This document shows, piece after piece, positions 25,091-36,454 of a DNA stretch of 37,261 bases. Position 1 is the first letter of the stretch; each line of letters opens with the position of its first letter. The DNA lies in the NCBI GenBank assembly GCA_021646405.1, contig SOER01000034.1:1-37261 (forward strand), written 5' to 3'. The position numbers were made by a program, and so were the translations under genes. A model generated the notes under the pieces. That model saw only the letters and a list, made by a program, of their open reading frames with translations. It did not search any database and was not told the DNA's origin. Source of the stretch: Candidatus Loosdrechtia aerotolerans (lineage in GTDB: Bacteria; Planctomycetota; Brocadiia; Brocadiales; Brocadiaceae).

Positions 25091-25112
<22 letters not shown>

Positions 25113-25729
25113 ATATATTCAAGGGTTTCAGGCATTCGATACATTTTTGTTTTTCTCCACTGTGCCAAATTGTGACCGAACTCTAAGGCCTCTACCCCAT
25201 TTTTAAGACTGTCAAGGCAATGATGTGCATACCGTTGTGTCATTTCTACAGAATGATGTCCTAACAACTTCAATATCTTATAAATATCAATGCTCCTTTG
25301 TGCTAACCGTGTTGCAAAGGTATGTCTTGGATCATGGAAATGAAAGTCATGGATACCTGCCTTTTTTATGGCATTATTAAAAGCCATTCTGGGATTGTGA
25401 CGGTCAATCTTAGTTATTGCATTGCTCAGAAATACAATGTCATTCTTAAGATTCCTGATTTTTGCCTTTTCCATTAAAATATTCAGTGCAATTTGGTTTA
25501 ATGGAATCGTCCTTTGCTTGCCGCTCTTAGATTCCTGAATAATGATAATTTTACGAAATAAATCAACCCGATCCCATTGAAGAGAAAGCAATTCCCCCTG
25601 ACACAATCCAGTGTGCAGATCAAAAAAGATTATATCTCTCAGCCATTGAGGGGTATTTTCGAGTAATCTTCTTTCCTGTCCCGTGGCTAATTGTGCCTGT
25701 ACGACTGTATTGAGAGAAATTATACATTT
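25091..25729 (-). pseudogene. Truncated tyrosine recombinase (phage/island integrase)
   Basis: The C-terminal catalytic half of a phage-type integrase. Visible parts are GELLSLQWDRVDL, KSGKQRTIPLN, HDPRHTFATRLAQ, LLGHHSVEMTQRYAHH (second Arg, His and the Tyr nucleophile). The first catalytic arginine, expected in TGLRxGELL, is a cysteine here (TGLCQGELL, codon TGT), one transition from CGT. An in-frame open stretch continues upstream (GQERRLLENTPQWLRDII) to a TGA at 25730-25732, with no N-terminal core-binding domain. The enzyme is therefore both truncated and probably inactive. Its last codons lie antisense in the tRNA-Pro gene, the classic position of an integrase at its attachment site. 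Confidence 0.8.
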
Positions 25730-26064
25730 TCACAGAAAATATCTCCAATGATTTTATTAACTGTATTTTCACCCGTATTCCGTTTCAAGGACGACATTAT
25801 CCTATTTTTGAGGTTTATCTTTGTTCTTAAATAATCTTTATCTTTACCCCATGTCTCTCTTCTCAGATGATCTTGCGCTTCATTCCAACACTTCATTACA
25901 GCTTTCTCGTCAATGATATCTAATCTATCCCTTGCTGCAAAGGAAGTCATATAGCCTGTTATTCCATTTTGATATAATATCTTATCACTGGGAATCCGGT
26001 CCTTATTTATCTCTCTTATTATTCCAGCATAAGTACCGTCCAGGAAACGTGTTTGTTGGATCAT
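25720..26064 (-). CDS. Hypothetical protein (114 aa)
   Basis: I do not recognise this ORF. It encodes a largely helical, charged protein without membrane segments or known motifs. Its start overlaps the stop of the preceding ORF by 4 bases (ATGA), typical of coupled genes, but there is no clear ribosome site. Its 3' end runs a few bases into the integrase remnant. It could be a cargo gene of the integrated element or part of a decayed longer gene. Confidence 0.4.
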   Translation of the reverse strand: MIQQTRFLDGTYAGIIREINKDRIPSDKILYQNGITGYMTSFAARDRLDIIDEKAVMKCWNEAQDHLRRETWGKDKDYLRTKINLKNRIMSSLKRNTGENTVNKIIGDIFCENV

Positions 26065-26303
26065 TTCCCATATGAGTATATGTCCTTCTGAAAAAGATCA
26101 ATTACTTGAGATAATTCAAGAAGCGAATTAATAGTATCATTTGACATACCAGGATAATAAGGTTTTGTTTTTTTCAAATCAAAAAGTATTTTTTTTGATT
26201 GAAAGTTGTCAAAGGAACACATTGTTCCCAAAACAGGTATGGAAAGTTCATCGAAGAAATACAATCTGACTGAAAGGATTTTAAACATGACAGAACACAT
26301 CAA
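26061..26303 (-). CDS. Hypothetical protein (80 aa)
   Basis: Not recognised. The first 10 or so codons lie antisense to a transposase remnant (26274-26620), so the N-terminus is doubtful and the gene may be 5'-truncated by that insertion. The remainder (from DELSIPVLGTMCSFDN) has no known motif. Coupling by ATGA to the next ORF suggests the two once formed one operon or one gene split by a frameshift. Confidence 0.3.
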   Translation of the reverse strand: MMCSVMFKILSVRLYFFDELSIPVLGTMCSFDNFQSKKILFDLKKTKPYYPGMSNDTINSLLELSQVIDLFQKDIYSYGK

Positions 26304-26337
26304 TTATGGCAGGAAGGATTCCATCCGCAGCAAATAA

Positions 26338-26410
26338 GTACCTGTACATAAATATTTGCATATTGAAACTCTTGACTAATAAAAATATACAAAAATTTGT
26401 GGTCAGGTAC
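26338..26410. mobile_element. 73-bp MITE-like element, copy 2, inserted in a RAYT gene
   Basis: Same length and terminal GTACCTG...CAGGTAC as the element at 340-412. The immediate flanks extend the inverted ends to AAGTACCTG / CAGGTACTT. The insertion separates two conserved blocks of a transposase coding sequence, which shows it moved in after that gene existed. Confidence 0.8.
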
Positions 26411-26578
26411 TTACAATCTGAAGCGATGATGCGTCAGAAAATAGAGTATATTCATTACAATCCGATAAGAAGATGTTATGTAGATGACCCTGCCAGTTGG
26501 ATTTACTCAAACACAAGGAATTTTATGAACAATGATAATTCAGTCCTGGAATTAGATTCCATATATCCTGGTAGATGC

Positions 26579-26618
26579 GACGCAAAGCGTCTCACAGTGC
26601 ATTCCAACGCAGAGCGTT
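26579..26618. repeat. Paired REP-like palindromes
   Basis: Two small hairpins stand 14 bases apart: GACGC-AAA-GCGTC (26579-26591) and AACGC-AGA-GCGTT (26606-26618). They lie at the 3' end of the RAYT remnant, where the REP partners of such transposases are normally found. Confidence 0.65.
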
Positions 26619-26620
26619 GA

Positions 26621-26980: not shown

Positions 26981-27254
26981 ATGAGCGAGAATATTAAAAA
27001 ATATGGAATAGAGAAGGGATTATCCTGCAACGGGATTCTCCTGGGCTATAGAAAGCATTGATCAGCAGATTGTTATCCTGCAAAAGTCAGAATTCGTTGC
27101 CGATAAAGATTCTGGCATTGGTGGTGGCTTGAGAAAGTTTATCCTTGAGGCGAAAAACCAAGGCGAAACGACTCTCGTCTTTAAACTTTGGCGTGAATGG
27201 GAGGGTGAATCCTCTGTCAAACGGCGTTACCACGTCACACTGAAAATTCGGTAA
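26981..27254 (+). pseudogene. Chagasin-like (I42) cysteine-peptidase inhibitor, frameshifted
   Basis: The frame 27021-27254 reads YPATGFSWAIES, then FVADKDSGIGGG, then ETTLVFKLWREWE and ends VTLKIR. These match the three inhibitory loops of chagasin-family inhibitors (NPTTGYxW, GxGG, and the RPWE-like loop), which block papain-family peptidases. The ATG at 26981, with GGGGG about 10 bases upstream, is in a different frame and stops after 26 codons, and a TAG lies upstream in the inhibitor frame. The N-terminal strand is thus lost or frameshifted. A papain-like peptidase is encoded 5 kb downstream (32184-34163), suggesting a former enzyme-inhibitor pair. Confidence 0.7.
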
Positions 27255-27283
27255 AAGTTAGATACTATAAAAGGAGGATTTTT

Positions 27284-27616
27284 ATGGCAAATGAAGTAAT
27301 TGAGAAAATTAAGAATGCTGTTAATAATCTGGTAACACTTGAGATCATAACAGCTGTTGGGGATGTTATGCTTAAAGATGGAAAGGTTTCACCAGTTATT
27401 GACTATTCCAAGAATCCCAATGTTATGTTAACCCGGGTCGACCTCCTCCAGGGGGATATTACGACCGTTTTTCACGAGGAGTTTGTTACCGGGAAGTATC
27501 AGAGTTTGCGTGATTTCCATGCTGGCAGGGAGAAGGAAGGGTACGAGATGATAAAGGCAAATATTGCTGCACTTGAGAGACTATGGGATTTTGCACAAAA
27601 ATCGCTGGGAACATAA
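27284..27616 (+). CDS. Conserved hypothetical protein (module gene A, 110 aa)
   Basis: Function unknown. It is a soluble protein of 110 residues with a strong ribosome site (AAAGGAGG) before the ATG. The N-terminus IEKIKNAVNNLVTLEIITAVGD resembles the start of the next gene product (IKKIATDLLNLEINTI), so the two share an IK-x(5)-NL-x-x-LEI-x-T motif. The middle part (DLLQGDITTVFHEEF) is beta-like and the C-terminus (EGYEMIKANIAALERLWDFA) helical. It starts 29 bases after the inhibitor remnant and ends 12 bases before gene B, so it belongs to one operon. Confidence 0.75.
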   Translation: MANEVIEKIKNAVNNLVTLEIITAVGDVMLKDGKVSPVIDYSKNPNVMLTRVDLLQGDITTVFHEEFVTGKYQSLRDFHAGREKEGYEMIKANIAALERLWDFAQKSLGT

Positions 27617-27628
27617 GAGGGCATACCA

Positions 27629-28318
27629 ATGCAGAATTTTAAAGAACAGATCAAGAAGATTGCAACTGATCTTTTGAATCTTGAGATCAATACCATTATT
27701 AAGCCCACTATTGAAGGCACAAAGATGCCGGGTCCCCGTCATGCATTGTTAGACATAGCAATGACATTTGATTGTGAGCTTATACGCCTTGGAGCAAAAC
27801 GATTTGAAGATCATGACGATACCGGCGGTTTTAGAGCATTTGATCAGTTACGAGGCAGGGCTAAAAACAAGATTCTTGAACTTGAGGAGGGTGGGATGAC
27901 GATTGAAAGAGTAGCTGATGTGTTAATGTTGCACCGGATAAAGGATAAATCGGATCAGATCAAAGGTATGTTCAATTCTCTCAAGCGGCGATATCCTAAT
28001 CCTGTCGTTTGGGATAATAACTATACTCATGCGCAAGTAGAAGAAAAAAGGCCTCCGTTCCCCCTGAATCCGGATGAACTGGTGTTAATTCGGAAGATTT
28101 GGGAAATCGGGGTAGAGGATATCTCTATGCAGACCGTTATCCAGCTTGATGGGGATGTGATAACACGGATACAGCCAAAATATATCTCGCCGGCTTACGA
28201 ACTGATTCATAAATTCCATAATCAAAGCATTGATACTTCTGTATCTTTTTGGAAGGATCTTGTAGGGATTGTAAATGAGTTTTTTAATTCAACTTTAAAA
28301 ATATTCTTTAAGCAATAA
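27629..28318 (+). CDS. Conserved hypothetical protein (module gene B, 229 aa)
   Basis: Function unknown; soluble. The N-terminal motif IKKIATDLLNLEINT matches that of gene A. The middle (about 40-125) is helical and charged, with DFCELIRLG-like helices and MTIERVADVLMLHRIKDKSDQIK. The C-terminal third contains QTVIQLDGDVITRI, closely similar to WTLIQPDGDIINKI in gene C. Gene B thus shares one motif with each neighbour, as an adaptor would. It overlaps gene C by one base (TAATG). Confidence 0.75.
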   Translation: MQNFKEQIKKIATDLLNLEINTIIKPTIEGTKMPGPRHALLDIAMTFDCELIRLGAKRFEDHDDTGGFRAFDQLRGRAKNKILELEEGGMTIERVADVLMLHRIKDKSDQIKGMFNSLKRRYPNPVVWDNNYTHAQVEEKRPPFPLNPDELVLIRKIWEIGVEDISMQTVIQLDGDVITRIQPKYISPAYELIHKFHNQSIDTSVSFWKDLVGIVNEFFNSTLKIFFKQ

Positions 28319-28764
28319 TGATGTTTTTCCGTCAGCTAGTAAGTTTACTCAGAGAGATGTATCTATCGGGTGGTGTTGAGGTGCGTACCCGTTTCGATAA
28401 TGCCTCAATATCTGATCCTTCACTCTGTGCATGGACATTGATCCAGCCGGATGGTGATATCATTAACAAAATTTCCGAAAGAGTTCTTGACCAGCCGGAT
28501 AATTGGCACAGGCATCTGGAGAATGTAGAACAAAAGATGGCTATTTTACGGCGATTCAGAAGTTCCTTAAAATGGATATCTGTTTCCTCAATACCCTTCC
28601 TCATATCGACAGGTTGCACCGCATGGATATTTCGGGAAAATATTCGTTACATGATAATTATATCTGCAGGAGGAACGGTTTTTAGCATTTCTTCTTTGCT
28701 TGTTAGATTTCTTACTGGCTGCATACTTCAATGGTATGTAAGGCGAAAGTTGATTGTTGATTAG
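28318..28764 (+). CDS. Membrane protein with shared IQ-DGD motif (module gene C, 148 aa)
   Basis: Function unknown. The N-terminal half carries WTLIQPDGDIINKI (about 39-52), the motif shared with gene B, followed by a helical segment. The C-terminal half has two hydrophobic stretches (about 84-103 and 108-132), predicted to form a membrane hairpin that ends in a basic tail. Overlap with gene B by TAATG indicates coupling. A membrane anchor for the A-B module is a reasonable guess. Confidence 0.72.
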   Translation: MMFFRQLVSLLREMYLSGGVEVRTRFDNASISDPSLCAWTLIQPDGDIINKISERVLDQPDNWHRHLENVEQKMAILRRFRSSLKWISVSSIPFLISTGCTAWIFRENIRYMIIISAGGTVFSISSLLVRFLTGCILQWYVRRKLIVD

Positions 28765-28877: not shown

Positions 28878-28995
28878 GCGGATTCAAGTTTGTAACTTGA
28901 ACCCCATATTTTCTAGTGTTTATTTAGCCTGTTGATGATAAAGAGCACTATTATCCAGTCAAACTTATGGGTTCAGGTTACAAACCTGAACCCGC
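28878..28995. repeat. Large inverted repeat of two self-palindromic arms
   Basis: The left arm (28878-28906) and right arm (28968-28995) are near-perfect reverse complements. Each arm is itself palindromic: TTCAAGTT-TGT-AACTTGAA on the left and TTCAGGTT-ACA-AACCTGAA on the right. The 61-base centre is AT-rich and non-coding. The layout resembles a paired-REP unit or a short MITE. Confidence 0.7.
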
Positions 28996-29405: not shown

Positions 29406-32081
29406 ATGAGCCGGGAAATTGATCGTCGGAATTTTAGTATCAACAAAGTTACACCTGCACGGGAAGCGGAGCTGAAATCACGTGCATCAGAAGTCTCAGA
29501 CCGCCTCCCCGGGTCACATCGGATAAGGATCAAAAGTTTTGATACTGCCACCGGTAACCCTTCAGTAATCATCTCAGAAGATGGACCTGCCGGGACGGAT
29601 AATTATATTCAGCGTGCCCTGGATCATGTGCGGAATATCAGTAAGGCATTAGGTTTGACGGCGGTTCAGCCGTCTGAATTTATGGCAGACCCACACATTC
29701 AACGCACTACCAGCGGTGCAGTTGCTGTTCACCTTCAGCAGCAGTATAAAGGTATACCTATCTTCCAGGCTACCGAAACGGTACGTTTTGCTCCAGACGG
29801 TAAGTTGAAGGAGACTGTGGGTAGTAGTATTGCAATTTATCAGGAGAGAGATGTTGTTCCAAAACTTTCCGTACAAGATGCTGTGTTGAAGGCAGCGCAG
29901 CATGTAGCTGCACCTGATAAAGATGAATATGAATTAAAAGATCAATTTGGAACGCCACTTATCCCAAAACAGGTAAATTTGAACGGTTTTGATCCCAAAG
30001 TAATTGCAACCTTTCCGGATAAGCCTGAACAACTCACTGTCCTTGAAGCTGGTCCATTTGGCGATAAAATCAGGGCCAATTTGATTTGGTTTCCCTTAAG
30101 CGATGACCTGCGATTAGCATGGGAAGTACTCCTGGCAATGCCAAACTACGAAGGCCAGTATCGTACCATGGTGGATGCTGAAACCGGGGAAATACTGTAT
30201 TGTAAACAATTGGTACAATCTGTTGCTGCGCAGGGAAATGTATATCTTGTGGATGGTAACACAGGTTCCCGCCAAATGATTCATTTCCCAAGGCCTTTAA
30301 CGGATTATAATCTGTCCATACCAAATAACTTGCCATTGGGGTTTCCTGAAGAGTGGGTTGAGACGAATAATACAGCGGGCAATAGTGTGTATGCACACCT
30401 GGGAGATAGTGGCCCGACGACTCAAGGGATTGTTCAAAATGGTATCCTTACCTTTGATCCTGCTGATCCGCAAGGCGACGATCAGAAGGTTCTTAATATC
30501 TTCTATTACAATTGTTACATGCACGACTTCTTTTACCTGCTTGGTTTTCGAGAGGTGGATGGAAACTTTCAGCATAATAACTTCAACCGGGGTGGTGTGG
30601 CGACTGATCGGGTTGATGCACGGGCCCATAGTGGTGCAGTATGGGGAACTGCTAACATGGCGACACCTGTCGACGGTTCAAGGCCTGTTATGAATATGGG
30701 ATTAGTAACGTCAACAAATCGGCATACGGCTTTTGACTCCAGCGTGGTGTTTCACGAGTTTATGCATGGCGTTACCAATCGCCTTGTCGGGGGCCCTATA
30801 AATGTTCGTGCTTTAGAAGCTCCCCAAAGCGCGGGTATGGGTGAAGGCTGGGGGGACTATATAGCATGTACTATCAATAAGAGTACCGTTGTTGGTTCAT
30901 GGGTTACCGGAAGACCGAATGGTATACGGGGATTCCCTTATGACAGCAACTTCCCTGATACCTTTGCTGATGTGGGGAAAGGTCGTTATGATGAAGAACA
31001 TAATATTGGTGAGATCTGGTGCGCCACGTTAATGGAAATGAATAGAAAAATTCATGGTACTGCTTTAGCTGTTCAGTTAGTTGTAGATGCCTTAAAGTTA
31101 TCTCCTGCTAATCCCAGTTTTCTTGATATGCGCGATGCTATACTGGCAGCTCTCGATGATAAAAATACTGCTGGTCAACTGAGTTCAAGTGAGTATTCTG
31201 CAGCCCGAAACGGTATCTGGTCTGCTTTCGCAAAGTTCGGAATGGGACCAAATGCACGTTCTAATGGTGCATCGTTGTTGGGTATCGTTGCTGATTTTAA
31301 AACCCCACCTGATACGACAGGCCAAAACGTGCGAGTTGGAACAGAGCCAAATATCGCTATTCCTGATAATAGCCCATCCGGTATAACCAGCATATTGACA
31401 ATCTCGCAGGCCGGACGAATCATAAAGTTGGCTGTTTTGATCGATATTGAACATACCTACATTGGTGATCTTAAAGTGAGCCTGACAACGCCGGGAGATC
31501 GTACGATTGTGCTTCATGACCGTACCGGAGCAGGTGCGGACAATTTAGTCAGGTCGTATACGAGTGAAGATATATCATCCCTTGCGACCCTTATAGGTGA
31601 ACAAGTGCAGGGTAATTGGGTGCTCAAAATAGCTGACCTTGCCGGAGCAGATGTTGGTACATTACGGCGCTGGGGTCTTGAAATAGATCTCGAGGGAGCA
31701 TCTCAGGTTGTGCGGGGTGAAGCAATACCGGCCTTAACAATTCCTGATAACAATCCTGTCGGAATAAGCAGCATTATTAATATCACCCAATTGGGAATAG
31801 CAAAAGGAATGAAGGTTGGTATCGATATTACCCATACCTATATTGGAGACCTACGGGTTGAACTTGTAGCCCCATCAGGTGAATTGGCAATACTTCATAA
31901 CCGTACGGGCGGCGGCCAGGATAATTTGATCACGACCTATGATTCGATCTCTACTCCATCCCTTGCGACTCTCATTGGAAAGCAAATAGAAGGAAGCTGG
32001 ATCTTACGGGTTACCGATACGGCCGGGCAAGATATCGGTAAATTGAACAGGTGGAGTTTGGAGTTTACTTTGCAGATATAG
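29406..32081 (+). CDS. M36 (fungalysin-type) metallopeptidase with two C-terminal P-domains
   Basis: A zinc peptidase of family M36, 891 residues. Residues 1-260 look like an inhibitory FTP/PepSY-type propeptide. The catalytic domain has the zinc motif HEFMH (450-454), NRLVGGP just after, and the third ligand glutamate in GMGEGWGDY (Glu470). Two repeats of about 115 residues (about 645-765 and 775-891) carry HTYIGDL, LHDRTG/LHNRTG and W(V/I)L-x(5-7)-AG motifs of proprotein convertase P-domains. GGAAGGAGG gives a strong ribosome site. No signal peptide is visible, although M36 enzymes are normally secreted. Either export uses another route or the enzyme works inside the cell. Confidence 0.88.
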   Translation: MSREIDRRNFSINKVTPAREAELKSRASEVSDRLPGSHRIRIKSFDTATGNPSVIISEDGPAGTDNYIQRALDHVRNISKALGLTAVQPSEFMADPHIQRTTSGAVAVHLQQQYKGIPIFQATETVRFAPDGKLKETVGSSIAIYQERDVVPKLSVQDAVLKAAQHVAAPDKDEYELKDQFGTPLIPKQVNLNGFDPKVIATFPDKPEQLTVLEAGPFGDKIRANLIWFPLSDDLRLAWEVLLAMPNYEGQYRTMVDAETGEILYCKQLVQSVAAQGNVYLVDGNTGSRQMIHFPRPLTDYNLSIPNNLPLGFPEEWVETNNTAGNSVYAHLGDSGPTTQGIVQNGILTFDPADPQGDDQKVLNIFYYNCYMHDFFYLLGFREVDGNFQHNNFNRGGVATDRVDARAHSGAVWGTANMATPVDGSRPVMNMGLVTSTNRHTAFDSSVVFHEFMHGVTNRLVGGPINVRALEAPQSAGMGEGWGDYIACTINKSTVVGSWVTGRPNGIRGFPYDSNFPDTFADVGKGRYDEEHNIGEIWCATLMEMNRKIHGTALAVQLVVDALKLSPANPSFLDMRDAILAALDDKNTAGQLSSSEYSAARNGIWSAFAKFGMGPNARSNGASLLGIVADFKTPPDTTGQNVRVGTEPNIAIPDNSPSGITSILTISQAGRIIKLAVLIDIEHTYIGDLKVSLTTPGDRTIVLHDRTGAGADNLVRSYTSEDISSLATLIGEQVQGNWVLKIADLAGADVGTLRRWGLEIDLEGASQVVRGEAIPALTIPDNNPVGISSIINITQLGIAKGMKVGIDITHTYIGDLRVELVAPSGELAILHNRTGGGQDNLITTYDSISTPSLATLIGKQIEGSWILRVTDTAGQDIGKLNRWSLEFTLQI

Positions 32082-32183: not shown

Positions 32184-34163
32184 ATGGCAAAAAAGAAAAA
32201 GGAGGGGAAGCGTGTCCTGGATGCACGTCCTGATACGCTTGATTTTCGTGATAAAATGTATGTCCCAACATTAATGGAAGTACCTACTCGTATTGACCTT
32301 GATGAGTATAAGCATCTGTATGTACCTGTTCTTGACCAAGGCACTGAAGGGGCATGTACCGGATTTGGCCTGGCTACGGTGGCGAATTATCTCCTCCGTA
32401 AACGCAGGATGGTACCAGATACTACATCGGTTAGTCCACGCATGTTTTATGAAATTGCCAGACGTTATGATGAGTGGGTGGGAGAGGATTATGATGGGTC
32501 GAGTGCTCGTGGAGCAATGAAGGGTTGGCATAAGCACGGGGTTTGTGCAGAAACGCTTTGGCCATACAATCCGCTTAAACCAGATAATCATCTGACACAT
32601 GAGCGACTGAGGGATGCAGCAAAGCGTCCTTTGGGTGCTTATTTCAGGGTAAACCATAAGGATTTAGTTGCCATGCATACTGCCCTGGCAGAAGTAGGCA
32701 TTCTTTATGCAACTGCATTGGTACATGATGGCTGGGATAAAATTGGTGCCGATGGGGTAATCCCGCCCAATGGTAAGATTCTTGGTGGACATGCCTTTGC
32801 TATCGTAGCCTTTGATGATCGGGGTTTTTGGATTCAAAATTCCTGGGGAGAAAATTGGGGGCAGGGCGGCTTTGCCTTAATTATGTATGATGATTGGTTG
32901 AACAATGGTACTGATGTCTGGGTAGCCCGATTAGGTGCTCCAGTTATCCTACGAACACCGGAGGCTGTCGCTACGAGTCAGTCGGCTATAGCTCAACAAT
33001 CGGAGACGTATGTTTATCAGGACCTTCGTCCTCACATCATTAGTATTGGCAATGATGGTTTTCTTCGTGAAAACGGTACCTATGGTACATCGGAAGCCGA
33101 AGTTGCTTCAATCTTTCGTGAGGATTTCTTACAGATTACAAAGGATTGGAGCAAGAAGCGGCTCCTCCTTTATGCCCACGGAGGGCTTACCAATGAATAT
33201 TCTGCCATACAACGTGTTGCAGACTACCGCACTGCATTATTAGAATACGAAGTCTATCCACTTGCGTTTATCTGGAAGAGTGATTTCTGGACAACGTTAA
33301 CTAATTTACTGAAGGATGCACTGAGCAGGCGGCGTCCCGAAGGTTTTATTGATGAGTCGAAGGACTTTATGCTCGACCGGCTGGACGATGCATTAGAGCC
33401 GCTCGTTCGGATGCTTGGGGGAAATCTCATATGGGATGAAATGAAAGAAAATGCTTTGGGTGCAACATATGAATCGCAGGGTGGTACGCGTATTGCAATA
33501 AAATATCTGGCAGAATTACTATCAAAAGATTCATCTATTGAGATTCATGTAGCCGGACATAGTGCCGGGGCTATATTTCATGCACCTCTTATTCAACTGT
33601 TGACCGGGCAAGGAAAGATAACATCAGGACCATTAAAGGGGAAAAAGGGCTATGGACTTAAGGTCTCCTCGTGTACCCTTTGGGCACCTGCTTGTACGAT
33701 AGAATTATTCAAACAAACCTACATGCCTGCAATTCAAAAGGGAGGTATTGGGAGATTTGCTCTGTTTACCCTTATGGATAGTGCAGAACAGGACGATCAT
33801 TGTGCATCAATTTATAATAAATCACTTCTCTACTTAGTCTCCAACGCCTTTGAAGAAAAACCGCGTATCCCGTTATTCCGTGATGGAGAGGCAATCCTTG
33901 GTATGGAAAAATTTATTAAAGAGGATAAGGATATTATGAAGCATATCGGTACCAAAAAATTCCAGTGGATCCTCTCACCGAACAATGCTGAGCCGGGCTC
34001 TCCGGATCACTCGACGGCAAAGAGTCATGGTGATTTTGATGATGACAAGGCGACGCTCCAGGCTACACTTGCCCGTATACTTCAGGAATCGGAAGTAGAT
34101 GTAAAATTTGCCATTCACCGTTCTGCATCTTCTTTGCAGAATAAGAGACATAAACTTATGTAG
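32184..34163 (+). CDS. Papain-like (C1A) cysteine peptidase fused to an alpha/beta hydrolase-type domain
   Basis: A 659-residue two-domain protein. The N-terminal C1 domain (about 10-250) has the oxyanion Gln52 and nucleophile Cys58 in DQGTEGACTGFG, the catalytic His203 in GGHAFAIVAF, and Asn219 in IQNSWGENWGQGGF, so the triad is intact. There is no signal peptide and almost no propeptide. After a linker, the second half has LLLYAHGGL (about 327-335) and a nucleophile elbow GHSAG (Ser460), as in lipase-like alpha/beta hydrolases. An AAAGGGG ribosome site precedes the ATG. The inhibitor remnant at 26981-27254 belongs to a family that targets this peptidase type. The substrate is unknown. Confidence 0.85.
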   Translation: MAKKKKEGKRVLDARPDTLDFRDKMYVPTLMEVPTRIDLDEYKHLYVPVLDQGTEGACTGFGLATVANYLLRKRRMVPDTTSVSPRMFYEIARRYDEWVGEDYDGSSARGAMKGWHKHGVCAETLWPYNPLKPDNHLTHERLRDAAKRPLGAYFRVNHKDLVAMHTALAEVGILYATALVHDGWDKIGADGVIPPNGKILGGHAFAIVAFDDRGFWIQNSWGENWGQGGFALIMYDDWLNNGTDVWVARLGAPVILRTPEAVATSQSAIAQQSETYVYQDLRPHIISIGNDGFLRENGTYGTSEAEVASIFREDFLQITKDWSKKRLLLYAHGGLTNEYSAIQRVADYRTALLEYEVYPLAFIWKSDFWTTLTNLLKDALSRRRPEGFIDESKDFMLDRLDDALEPLVRMLGGNLIWDEMKENALGATYESQGGTRIAIKYLAELLSKDSSIEIHVAGHSAGAIFHAPLIQLLTGQGKITSGPLKGKKGYGLKVSSCTLWAPACTIELFKQTYMPAIQKGGIGRFALFTLMDSAEQDDHCASIYNKSLLYLVSNAFEEKPRIPLFRDGEAILGMEKFIKEDKDIMKHIGTKKFQWILSPNNAEPGSPDHSTAKSHGDFDDDKATLQATLARILQESEVDVKFAIHRSASSLQNKRHKLM

Positions 34164-34432: not shown

Positions 34433-36454
34433 ATGGATGAGATGTATGCAACTTTGAAATCAGCCTTTCAACAAGCGGAAGGTAACGGTCTGCGCTTGAT
34501 TCTCCTAATCCAGTTGGGCGGATTCAGCGCCGGTCATTGGGAGAAAATCGCCGCAACTAATTCTAACATCAAAATGAATTTCATTCAGACACGTGAAGGA
34601 AATCAGACGAAGCGCTATGGAGCACCATCGATTGCACCCGAACCAAATGGAATTGACAAGAGTTTTGAGGATCTCCTGGTCAAGATCCGGGATGCGCACC
34701 AGCACTCGGGCGTTTCGTATCCCCTTGAATACCTTCATATCGGCCATGATGAACCGTCAAATCACAGGGTGTGCATCTTCGGGAAACAATGGGCGAATTT
34801 CTTCATCTGGGGCGTAACAAAATCAGGTATTCCCTATGCTACCGAGGCAGCCTCTATTACAGATATTCATCACATCAATGGTCTGAGGAGATCTGGCTTA
34901 ACGACTTCCCAGGCGTATCAGCAGACGTATGTCGGTGAGATCTTCAGGCGGCTTGAGCAGACCCAGCGCATACTTGGCGACCACGTTCAACTGATGATCT
35001 ACGGCGACGCATGGGATCCACAGTCTCATGGCTGGCTGACCTTTGAGACAAACGCGGGCGATGCCCAGTGGTGTGATGGTATTCTGATGCTTTCCGGACT
35101 AACCGATGATCAGAAAATACACTTTAAAAACGGAGTCATTCTTCTTCCTTGGAACTATGATGGAAGAAGGCCGTTTGCTCTCCCAGAGGAATACGCCAGA
35201 TTCAATGCGCCCGGCATCTTCCAAAAGGACATTCGTCCAGACTACCGTACAGATGACACCTTCTATAAGCTTACCAAGAACGGTTTCAGGTATCTATGGA
35301 CGTATGCTAATGCCACCTATCATAACACAAACCAGGCTTGGGAGTATCGGAACAACAGTTTGAACCACAAGAGGAACGTTCTCGGTTACTATGCGGCGAC
35401 TTGGCATTTGTGGAATCAAAACTATGTGGATGGTGCCTTCTCTGTAATCAAATTCTTGCGAGACGTAAATGTCAACGATGTTCCATCAAGAAGTTTTGTT
35501 AATCGGGGATCTGAACGATTCTACGACGTACATCTGCGGTCGCATACCGGTCACTCGCTGAAGGCCACAAATGGTGGTGGTTCAAGTGTGGTCGCAACGG
35601 ATTTCAATCGAAGCCGATGGGAAACGTTCACCTTAGTTGACCTTAATGGAGGAAGCCTCCAAAGTGGAGACGAGGTCTGGATTCAAACTTGGAACAACAT
35701 GCATTATCTTGTAGCTCAGAACGGCGGTGGCAATGCCCTCCTTGCCGATTGTACTTTGCCTACGTACTGGGAGACCTTCACCATTCATCGCGTTGATAAC
35801 TGGTTCAATGCAGTGAGTGGTACCATAGGGTCTGGAACTCGGGTTGCATTCAGGGCCTACAACAACAGGAACTACATTCGAGTGCTCAACGGTGGAGGTA
35901 TAGGCATTGATGTCGCAGGAACCGCAATTGGCACGTGGGAAGTCATGACGTTGGAATACTCCTCGTTACACTCTCTATCATTCGAAACGATCAACGGCTG
36001 TTATCTTGTGGCCGAAGGGGGAGGGGGGGACAGGCAGACGGTAAATGCAGACAGAACAACTGCTGGGAACTGGGAGACATTCGTTGTGACGGACCTCAAT
36101 GGTGGGCTTCTCGAAAGCGGGGACCAGGTGAACATCGCTGGATGGAACAACACCCACTATGTCGCCGCTGAGCGGTGGGGAGAACGTCAGCTCAATGTCG
36201 ATCGACCGAGCCCCGGAACGTGGGAAACATTCAGAGTGAAGCTACTTGATGCCAATCGGAGTATCGTTGGTGGGACTATACACAACATGGCCAATATCGC
36301 TATCGAAACACTTGAGATCCCACCGTACTATGTGGTTGCCGAAGGTGGCGGCGGTGCACGGCCCGCGCTCGCAGTACCGCTATCGGCAACTGGGAAGTAT
36401 TCAAAATCCACTACTGATATCTGGGGTGTGCCGATATTGTTCACTTTTCGCTAA
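34433..36454 (+). CDS. GH20-like glycosidase with C-terminal beta-trefoil-type repeats, 5'-truncated
   Basis: A protein of 673 residues from this ATG. The N-terminal half resembles a TIM-barrel glycosidase of the GH20 (hexosaminidase) type: LHIGHDEP (102-108) matches the GH20 Asp-Glu signature, and IYGDAWDP and ILLPWNYDG fit later strands. From about residue 365 onwards five WETF/WEVM units recur, with SGDEVWIQTWNN and YLVAQNGGG elements, as in fascin-like or lectin-like beta-trefoils. The frame stays open and protein-like (AEFSFNDYAANH) back to a TAG at 34379-34381, with AGGAGG but no standard start codon there. The first barrel strands therefore seem lost and the true start is uncertain. 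It lies just after the RAYT fossil. Confidence 0.65.
   Translation: MDEMYATLKSAFQQAEGNGLRLILLIQLGGFSAGHWEKIAATNSNIKMNFIQTREGNQTKRYGAPSIAPEPNGIDKSFEDLLVKIRDAHQHSGVSYPLEYLHIGHDEPSNHRVCIFGKQWANFFIWGVTKSGIPYATEAASITDIHHINGLRRSGLTTSQAYQQTYVGEIFRRLEQTQRILGDHVQLMIYGDAWDPQSHGWLTFETNAGDAQWCDGILMLSGLTDDQKIHFKNGVILLPWNYDGRRPFALPEEYARFNAPGIFQKDIRPDYRTDDTFYKLTKNGFRYLWTYANATYHNTNQAWEYRNNSLNHKRNVLGYYAATWHLWNQNYVDGAFSVIKFLRDVNVNDVPSRSFVNRGSERFYDVHLRSHTGHSLKATNGGGSSVVATDFNRSRWETFTLVDLNGGSLQSGDEVWIQTWNNMHYLVAQNGGGNALLADCTLPTYWETFTIHRVDNWFNAVSGTIGSGTRVAFRAYNNRNYIRVLNGGGIGIDVAGTAIGTWEVMTLEYSSLHSLSFETINGCYLVAEGGGGDRQTVNADRTTAGNWETFVVTDLNGGLLESGDQVNIAGWNNTHYVAAERWGERQLNVDRPSPGTWETFRVKLLDANRSIVGGTIHNMANIAIETLEIPPYYVVAEGGGGARPALAVPLSATGKYSKSTTDIWGVPILFTFR

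What the first reader, a model, noticed from the sequence alone, without database searches (positions are those of the whole stretch)
27284..28764. Three-gene module A-B-C linked by shared short motifs, ending in a membrane hairpin
Genes A and B both begin with an IK-x(5)-NL/LL-x-LEI-x-T motif. Genes B and C both carry T-x-IQ-x-DGD-x-I-x-x-I. The genes are spaced by 12 bases and by a one-base overlap, with gene C predicted to be membrane-anchored. Motif sharing along a chain of genes suggests proteins that bind each other or a common partner. Next to a peptidase inhibitor and two peptidases, this looks like a signalling, protease-control or conflict system that I cannot match to a named one.
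Basis: partly seen in the sequence, partly recalled or inferred. Interest (0 to 1): 0.72.

Follow-up and report, generated by a model that had tools for sequence, protein, structure and literature searches.

The report
Undescribed three-gene membrane-linked protein module
Three small neighbouring genes in an anammox bacterium, matching no described family, appear to carry versions of one small protein domain, the third with a membrane anchor; the same trio occurs in other anammox genomes and in soil Azospirillum, so it is probably a real, mobile protein complex, though what it does is unknown.

Summary
A and B share both the N-terminal helix-strand motif and a later GD[I/V]-x-T hairpin, in the same order; B carries a long helical insert between them. 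B and C share the hairpin. A-B and B-C profile matches beat 200 of 200 column shuffles; A-C alone does not. Low-confidence models give A and C the same helix-strand-strand-strand-helix order with GD at the same turn. All three genes are under purifying selection. No model in Pfam, NCBIfam, PADLOC, PHROGs or PDB sequences credibly matches them. The trio is conserved in order in 5 of 62 anammox-order genomes and on Azospirillum megaplasmids, where it follows parA-parB with no peptidase nearby. In anammox genomes 4 of 5 copies sit near different peptidase genes, but the papain-type gene is usually found without the trio and has a different transfer history. So the protease link is a recurrent island association, not a defining feature. 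Best reading: a mobile, membrane-tethered three-subunit complex built from one repeated domain, possibly the constant part of a conflict-type system. Biochemical function is not shown.

The parts
27284..27616 (+). Gene A, 110 aa: helix, strand LEIIT, then hairpin MLTRVDLLQGDITT, then long helix; compact form of the shared domain
   Evidence: ORF; orthologues in 4 other anammox genomes and Azospirillum; dN well below dS
27629..28318 (+). Gene B, 229 aa: same N-terminal helix-strand (IKKIATDLLNLEINT) and same hairpin (TVIQLDGDVITR), with a mostly helical insert of about 130-140 residues between
   Evidence: ORF; alignments; profile matches to A and C
28321..28764 (+). Gene C, 147 aa from the conserved ATG (148 from 28318): GVEVRT strand, hairpin TLIQPDGDIIN, helix, then C-terminal helical hairpin predicted to be in the membrane
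   Evidence: ORF; alignments; AF2 order H-E-E-E-H plus long helices; hydropathy
27271..27279 (+). Likely ribosome-binding site of A (AAAGGAGGA)
   Evidence: sequence
26983..27253 (+). Chagasin (I42) inhibitor remnant, N-terminus lost or frameshifted; neighbour, not part of the module
   Evidence: Pfam PF09394 E 2e-14 on the downstream frame; frame break
29406..32081 (+). M36 metallopeptidase with two P domains, no obvious signal peptide; variable neighbour
   Evidence: Pfam
32184..34163 (+). Papain-type (C1) peptidase fused to a region with a GHSAG motif, probably an alpha/beta hydrolase; variable neighbour
   Evidence: Pfam PF00112; 13 of 61 genomes; second half matches no Pfam or PDB sequence, so the hydrolase call rests on the motif only

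Best explanation
A, B and C are three subunits of one membrane-tethered complex, each built around a divergent copy of one small helix-strand-hairpin-helix domain. A is the bare domain. B has a long helical insert in it. C has the domain followed by a membrane hairpin, which would hold the complex on the inner face of the membrane. The subunits most likely join through the shared domain. The trio moves as a unit between unrelated genomes. In anammox bacteria it tends to settle in islands beside exchangeable peptidase or hydrolase genes, which could be the effectors that the complex holds or switches. Shown: conserved trio, shared motifs above chance for A-B and B-C, predicted membrane segment in C, purifying selection, patchy spread. 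Inferred: physical complex, shared fold for all three, membrane side, any control of effectors.
For: Same order and strand in five anammox genomes of two families and in Azospirillum megaplasmids. Profile matches A-B and B-C beat all shuffles. AF2 gives C the order H-E-E-E-H with DGD at the strand 2-3 turn (block pLDDT 60-82 there); A has the same order with GD at the same turn, but pLDDT under 50. TM segment in C in 8 of 8 orthologues, none in A or B. dN 0.12-0.49 against dS above 1.3 or saturated. Different flanks everywhere: the FtsH-YebC core next to the window copy is conserved in related genomes without the trio. Linked genes: papain-hydrolase and M36 (window); papain-hydrolase, S8 and M43 (G011); TIR/deoxyribosyltransferase-like gene and caspase-hydrolase (G032); NAL1/trypsin-fold (G039); reverse transcriptase plus FGE-sulfatase-domain protein about 5 kb away (G036).
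Against: The fused A-B model is poor (mean pLDDT 43.5) and did not build the B strands. A-C similarity is not significant by sequence. No effector is constant; Azospirillum copies have no linked effector at all and sit by parA-parB. No experimental interaction data.
Confidence: 0.5

Rival explanations
1. The trio is the constant core of a conflict (defence or programmed-death) system of the general type described by Kaur et al. 2020, and the variable neighbouring peptidases and hydrolases are its effectors.
For: Four of five anammox copies lie near peptidase genes of different families; caspase and alpha/beta-hydrolase pairing is a theme of those systems (PMC7159879); a TIR-like effector match in G032; the membrane-associated EACC1-caspase system is a published analogue; patchy distribution.
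Against: No EAD, EACC1 or Trypco match in A, B or C and no credible PADLOC match. Azospirillum and G036 copies lack adjacent peptidases. The papain-hydrolase gene is mostly found without the trio and was exchanged more recently (dS 0.52) than the trio (near or at saturation).
Confidence: 0.3
2. The trio is an accessory housekeeping or plasmid-maintenance module (for example aiding parA-parB partition or membrane positioning), and the peptidases are unrelated island cargo.
For: In all five Azospirillum regions read the trio directly follows parA-parB, and the seven plasmids carrying the close parB are the seven carrying the trio.
Against: The seven plasmids are close relatives, so this is in effect one event. 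No parA-parB was seen beside the anammox copies.
Confidence: 0.2
3. The motifs are chance or convergent short strings in three unrelated orphan proteins that happen to be co-transcribed.
For: Motifs are short; A-C is not significant; the models are weak.
Against: 0 of 200 and 0 of 150 shuffles reach the A-B and B-C scores, there are two collinear matches between A and B, and the motif positions are conserved across phyla.
Confidence: 0.12

Closest known systems
[quoted passage not shown] 2020, PMC7159879)
   Same: Small alpha+beta membrane protein in a compact gene set, in some genomes near caspase-type peptidases; patchy spread
   Different: EACC1 has one TM helix between alpha+beta ends and its second gene carries a fused caspase; here three genes share one domain, C has a hairpin, no linked enzyme is constant, and no EACC1 profile match was found
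MoxR-vWA ternary systems with Trypco-trypsin or caspase-alpha/beta-hydrolase pairs (Kaur et al. 2020, PMC7159879)
   Same: Peptidase plus alpha/beta hydrolase as linked enzymes in some loci
   Different: No MoxR, vWA, VMAP or Trypco component beside the trio
Bacterial TRADD-N / Death-like adaptor domains (Kaur et al. 2021, PMC8195603)
   Same: Idea of one adaptor domain repeated in neighbouring proteins to bring partners together
   Different: No Pfam match to any of these; the shared domain is not fused to effectors here

Membership tests
EACC1 system | EACC1 profile match (PF19953) in the membrane protein | tested here: not met
   No Pfam match for C and its relatives; the only EACC1 hit in the genome is elsewhere and below cut-off
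EACC1 system | Adjacent 3' gene with N-terminal caspase or cyclase | tested here: not met
   Caspase gene only in G032, about 3 kb downstream with a gene between
MoxR-vWA ternary conflict systems | MoxR ATPase and vWA protein adjacent | tested here: not met
   No such pair seen beside the trio in the regions read; a lone vWA/CBM9 protein lies about 15 kb away in G011
Trypsin-co-occurring Trypco1/2 | Trypco profile match and trypsin gene | tested here: not met
   No match for A, B, C; only G039 has a trypsin-fold gene next door
Known anti-phage systems in PADLOC | Profile match of A, B or C | tested here: not met
   None for A or B; only short stray matches for C (SAVED E 0.017) and for one C relative (Cas2, 30 residues, best E 4e-4)
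Conflict system in general | Protects against invaders or kills the cell on invasion | not testable with these tools
   Needs an experiment
Same-domain trio (this proposal) | A and B share two collinear motifs above chance | tested here: met
Same-domain trio (this proposal) | B and C share the hairpin above chance | tested here: met
Same-domain trio (this proposal) | One fold in all three | tested here: inconclusive
   C and A same element order at low confidence; B strands not built
   4 of 5 anammox loci yes, Azospirillum loci no

The most novel reading that the evidence does not exclude
An undescribed class of membrane-tethered three-protein switch, made of three copies of one new adaptor domain, that recruits interchangeable peptidases or hydrolases and is spread horizontally across phyla.
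Probability: 0.22. Interest if true: 0.75.

Novelty: new variant of a known kind. Interest (0 to 1): 0.45.

Why it matters
It defines three protein families without any described match and ties them together by a shared domain, a fixed gene order across two phyla, and selection. If the complex and its link to changing enzymes are confirmed, it would be a new adaptor platform of the sort used in bacterial immunity or programmed death; if not, it is still a conserved, mobile complex awaiting a function.

Tried and rejected
Pfam, NCBIfam, PADLOC, PHROGs and PDB-sequence searches gave no credible family. Viral contigs and phage genomes gave no relative, so a phage origin is not supported. Phylum-wide searches gave none outside the anammox order apart from two marginal hits (E about 0.005-0.009) that vanished with the wider profile. 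Foldseek with the C model gave nothing significant in PDB or viral models; the helix-strand-strand-strand-helix order recalls the dsRBD topology (from memory), but TRBP hits at E 1.5-2 are noise, so this is only a lead. A papain-linked system was rejected as a general description. Structure prediction was limited to three sequences because only those loci were admissible, which keeps the models weak.

Full report
What is there. A (27284-27616), B (27629-28318) and C (28318-28764) are open frames on the + strand with the spacing stated. Orthologues begin C at the second ATG, so 28321 is the more likely start. The contig belongs to a 3.26 Mb genome whose same-family relatives include Candidatus Brocadia assemblies, so it comes from an anammox-group bacterium.

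Are the motifs more than chance? The two matches lie in the same order, so A and B look like one domain with a long helical insert in B. Profile comparisons on eight orthologues gave A-B P 3e-4 (0 of 200 column shuffles reach it), B-C P 7e-5 (0 of 200), N-terminal A-B P 1e-5 (0 of 150); A-C is not significant (23 of 200) although its best alignment falls on the same GD hairpin. Plain pairwise alignment with shuffles agrees: A-B p about 0.004, B-C p about 0.006, A-C 0.72.

Structure. AlphaFold2 with three admissible sequences gave C a mean pLDDT of 64: helix 2-16, strands 20-25, 37-42, 48-52, helix 60-85, then long helices of a membrane hairpin, with DGD at the turn between strands 2 and 3. A and B were folded as one chain read through the stop of A, which is in frame with B. 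Mean pLDDT was only 43.5; A shows helix 2-16, strands 18-24, 47-53, 58-63, helix 75-108 with GD at the same turn, and the strands of B were not built. This is compatible with a common fold but does not prove it. Fold searches were not informative.

Who has it. The trio is present, in order, in 5 of 62 genomes of the order: the window, G011, G032 and two genomes of another family, G036 and G039. tblastn found B in seven Azospirillum megaplasmids (E down to 4e-13), and reading five of these regions showed A and C on either side of B. No phage or viral contig has it. A, B and C were never seen apart in these data. All three genes show dN far below dS among the three closest genomes.

Neighbours. 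Window: truncated chagasin gene, M36 with P domains, papain-type peptidase fused to a GHSAG-bearing region. G011: the same papain fusion directly upstream, with S8 plus P domain, M43 and an eCIS-core protein further up. G032: a deoxyribosyltransferase/TIR-like gene and a caspase plus hydrolase protein downstream. G039: a NAL1-type trypsin-fold gene directly upstream. G036: no peptidase next door; a reverse transcriptase and FGE-sulfatase-domain protein lie about 5 kb downstream. Azospirillum: parA-parB directly upstream, no peptidase near. If one assumes that 15% of loci would have a peptidase gene this close by chance, 4 of 5 has p about 0.002, but that rate is an assumption and two of the four share the same papain gene. 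The papain fusion occurs in 13 of 61 genomes and lies beside the trio in two. Between window and G011 its dS is 0.52, while the trio, FtsH and YebC are at or near saturation. So the papain gene was probably exchanged recently on its own. Two separate meetings of papain gene and trio may mean a functional link or a shared island hot spot; the data do not decide. Genomes with the trio have the papain gene more often (4 of 5 against 9 of 56, Fisher p 0.006), not corrected for kinship.

Setting. Upstream, the FtsH-YebC block is conserved in related genomes, and similarity stops at about 25.1-25.2 kb, where an integrase fragment lies; the DNA that follows in three related genomes shows no match to the window. 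The window trio is therefore in a variable island.

Compared with what is known. The nearest published ideas are the membrane-associated EACC1-caspase system and the adaptor-domain systems of Kaur et al. (PMC7159879, PMC8195603). The trio works like these at most by analogy; every profile-based membership test was negative.

Verdict. The interpretation of interacting proteins is plausible and well supported by conservation. The protease-control interpretation is only one option. The families are undescribed in every library searched. The function is open.

Noticed in passing
window 32184-34163; L009 7593-9572: Papain-hydrolase fusion gene is 90% identical with dS 0.52 between genomes whose housekeeping genes are saturated at synonymous sites, so it was probably transferred recently; present in 13 of 61 related genomes.
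   Followed up: partly
window 25091-26620: Integrase fragment and a short ORF resembling the end of a REP-associated transposase (recalled, no Pfam match) lie at the edge between the conserved FtsH-YebC block and the variable island.
   Followed up: partly
window 28880-28995: Two related stretches (GTTTGTAACTTGAACCC and GGGTTCAGGTTACAAACCTGAACCC) just after gene C look like an imperfect inverted repeat, perhaps a small mobile element.
   Followed up: no
window 26983-27253: Chagasin inhibitor gene with broken N-terminal frame.
   Followed up: yes
window 34433-36454: Large protein with four DUF7910 stretches following the peptidases.
   Followed up: no
L013 5757-6959 and 8313-10256: eCIS-core (PF13699) protein and S8 peptidase with P domain in the same stretch as the trio in a Brocadia genome, suggesting genes of the injected-cargo type.
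   Followed up: no
L011 17027-19945: Reverse transcriptase with an FGE-sulfatase-domain protein, like a diversity-generating retroelement, about 5 kb from the trio in G036.
   Followed up: no
L010 3061-8058: TIR/deoxyribosyltransferase-like gene and a caspase plus alpha/beta-hydrolase (DUF7379) protein downstream of the trio in G032, possibly a separate defence unit.
   Followed up: partly
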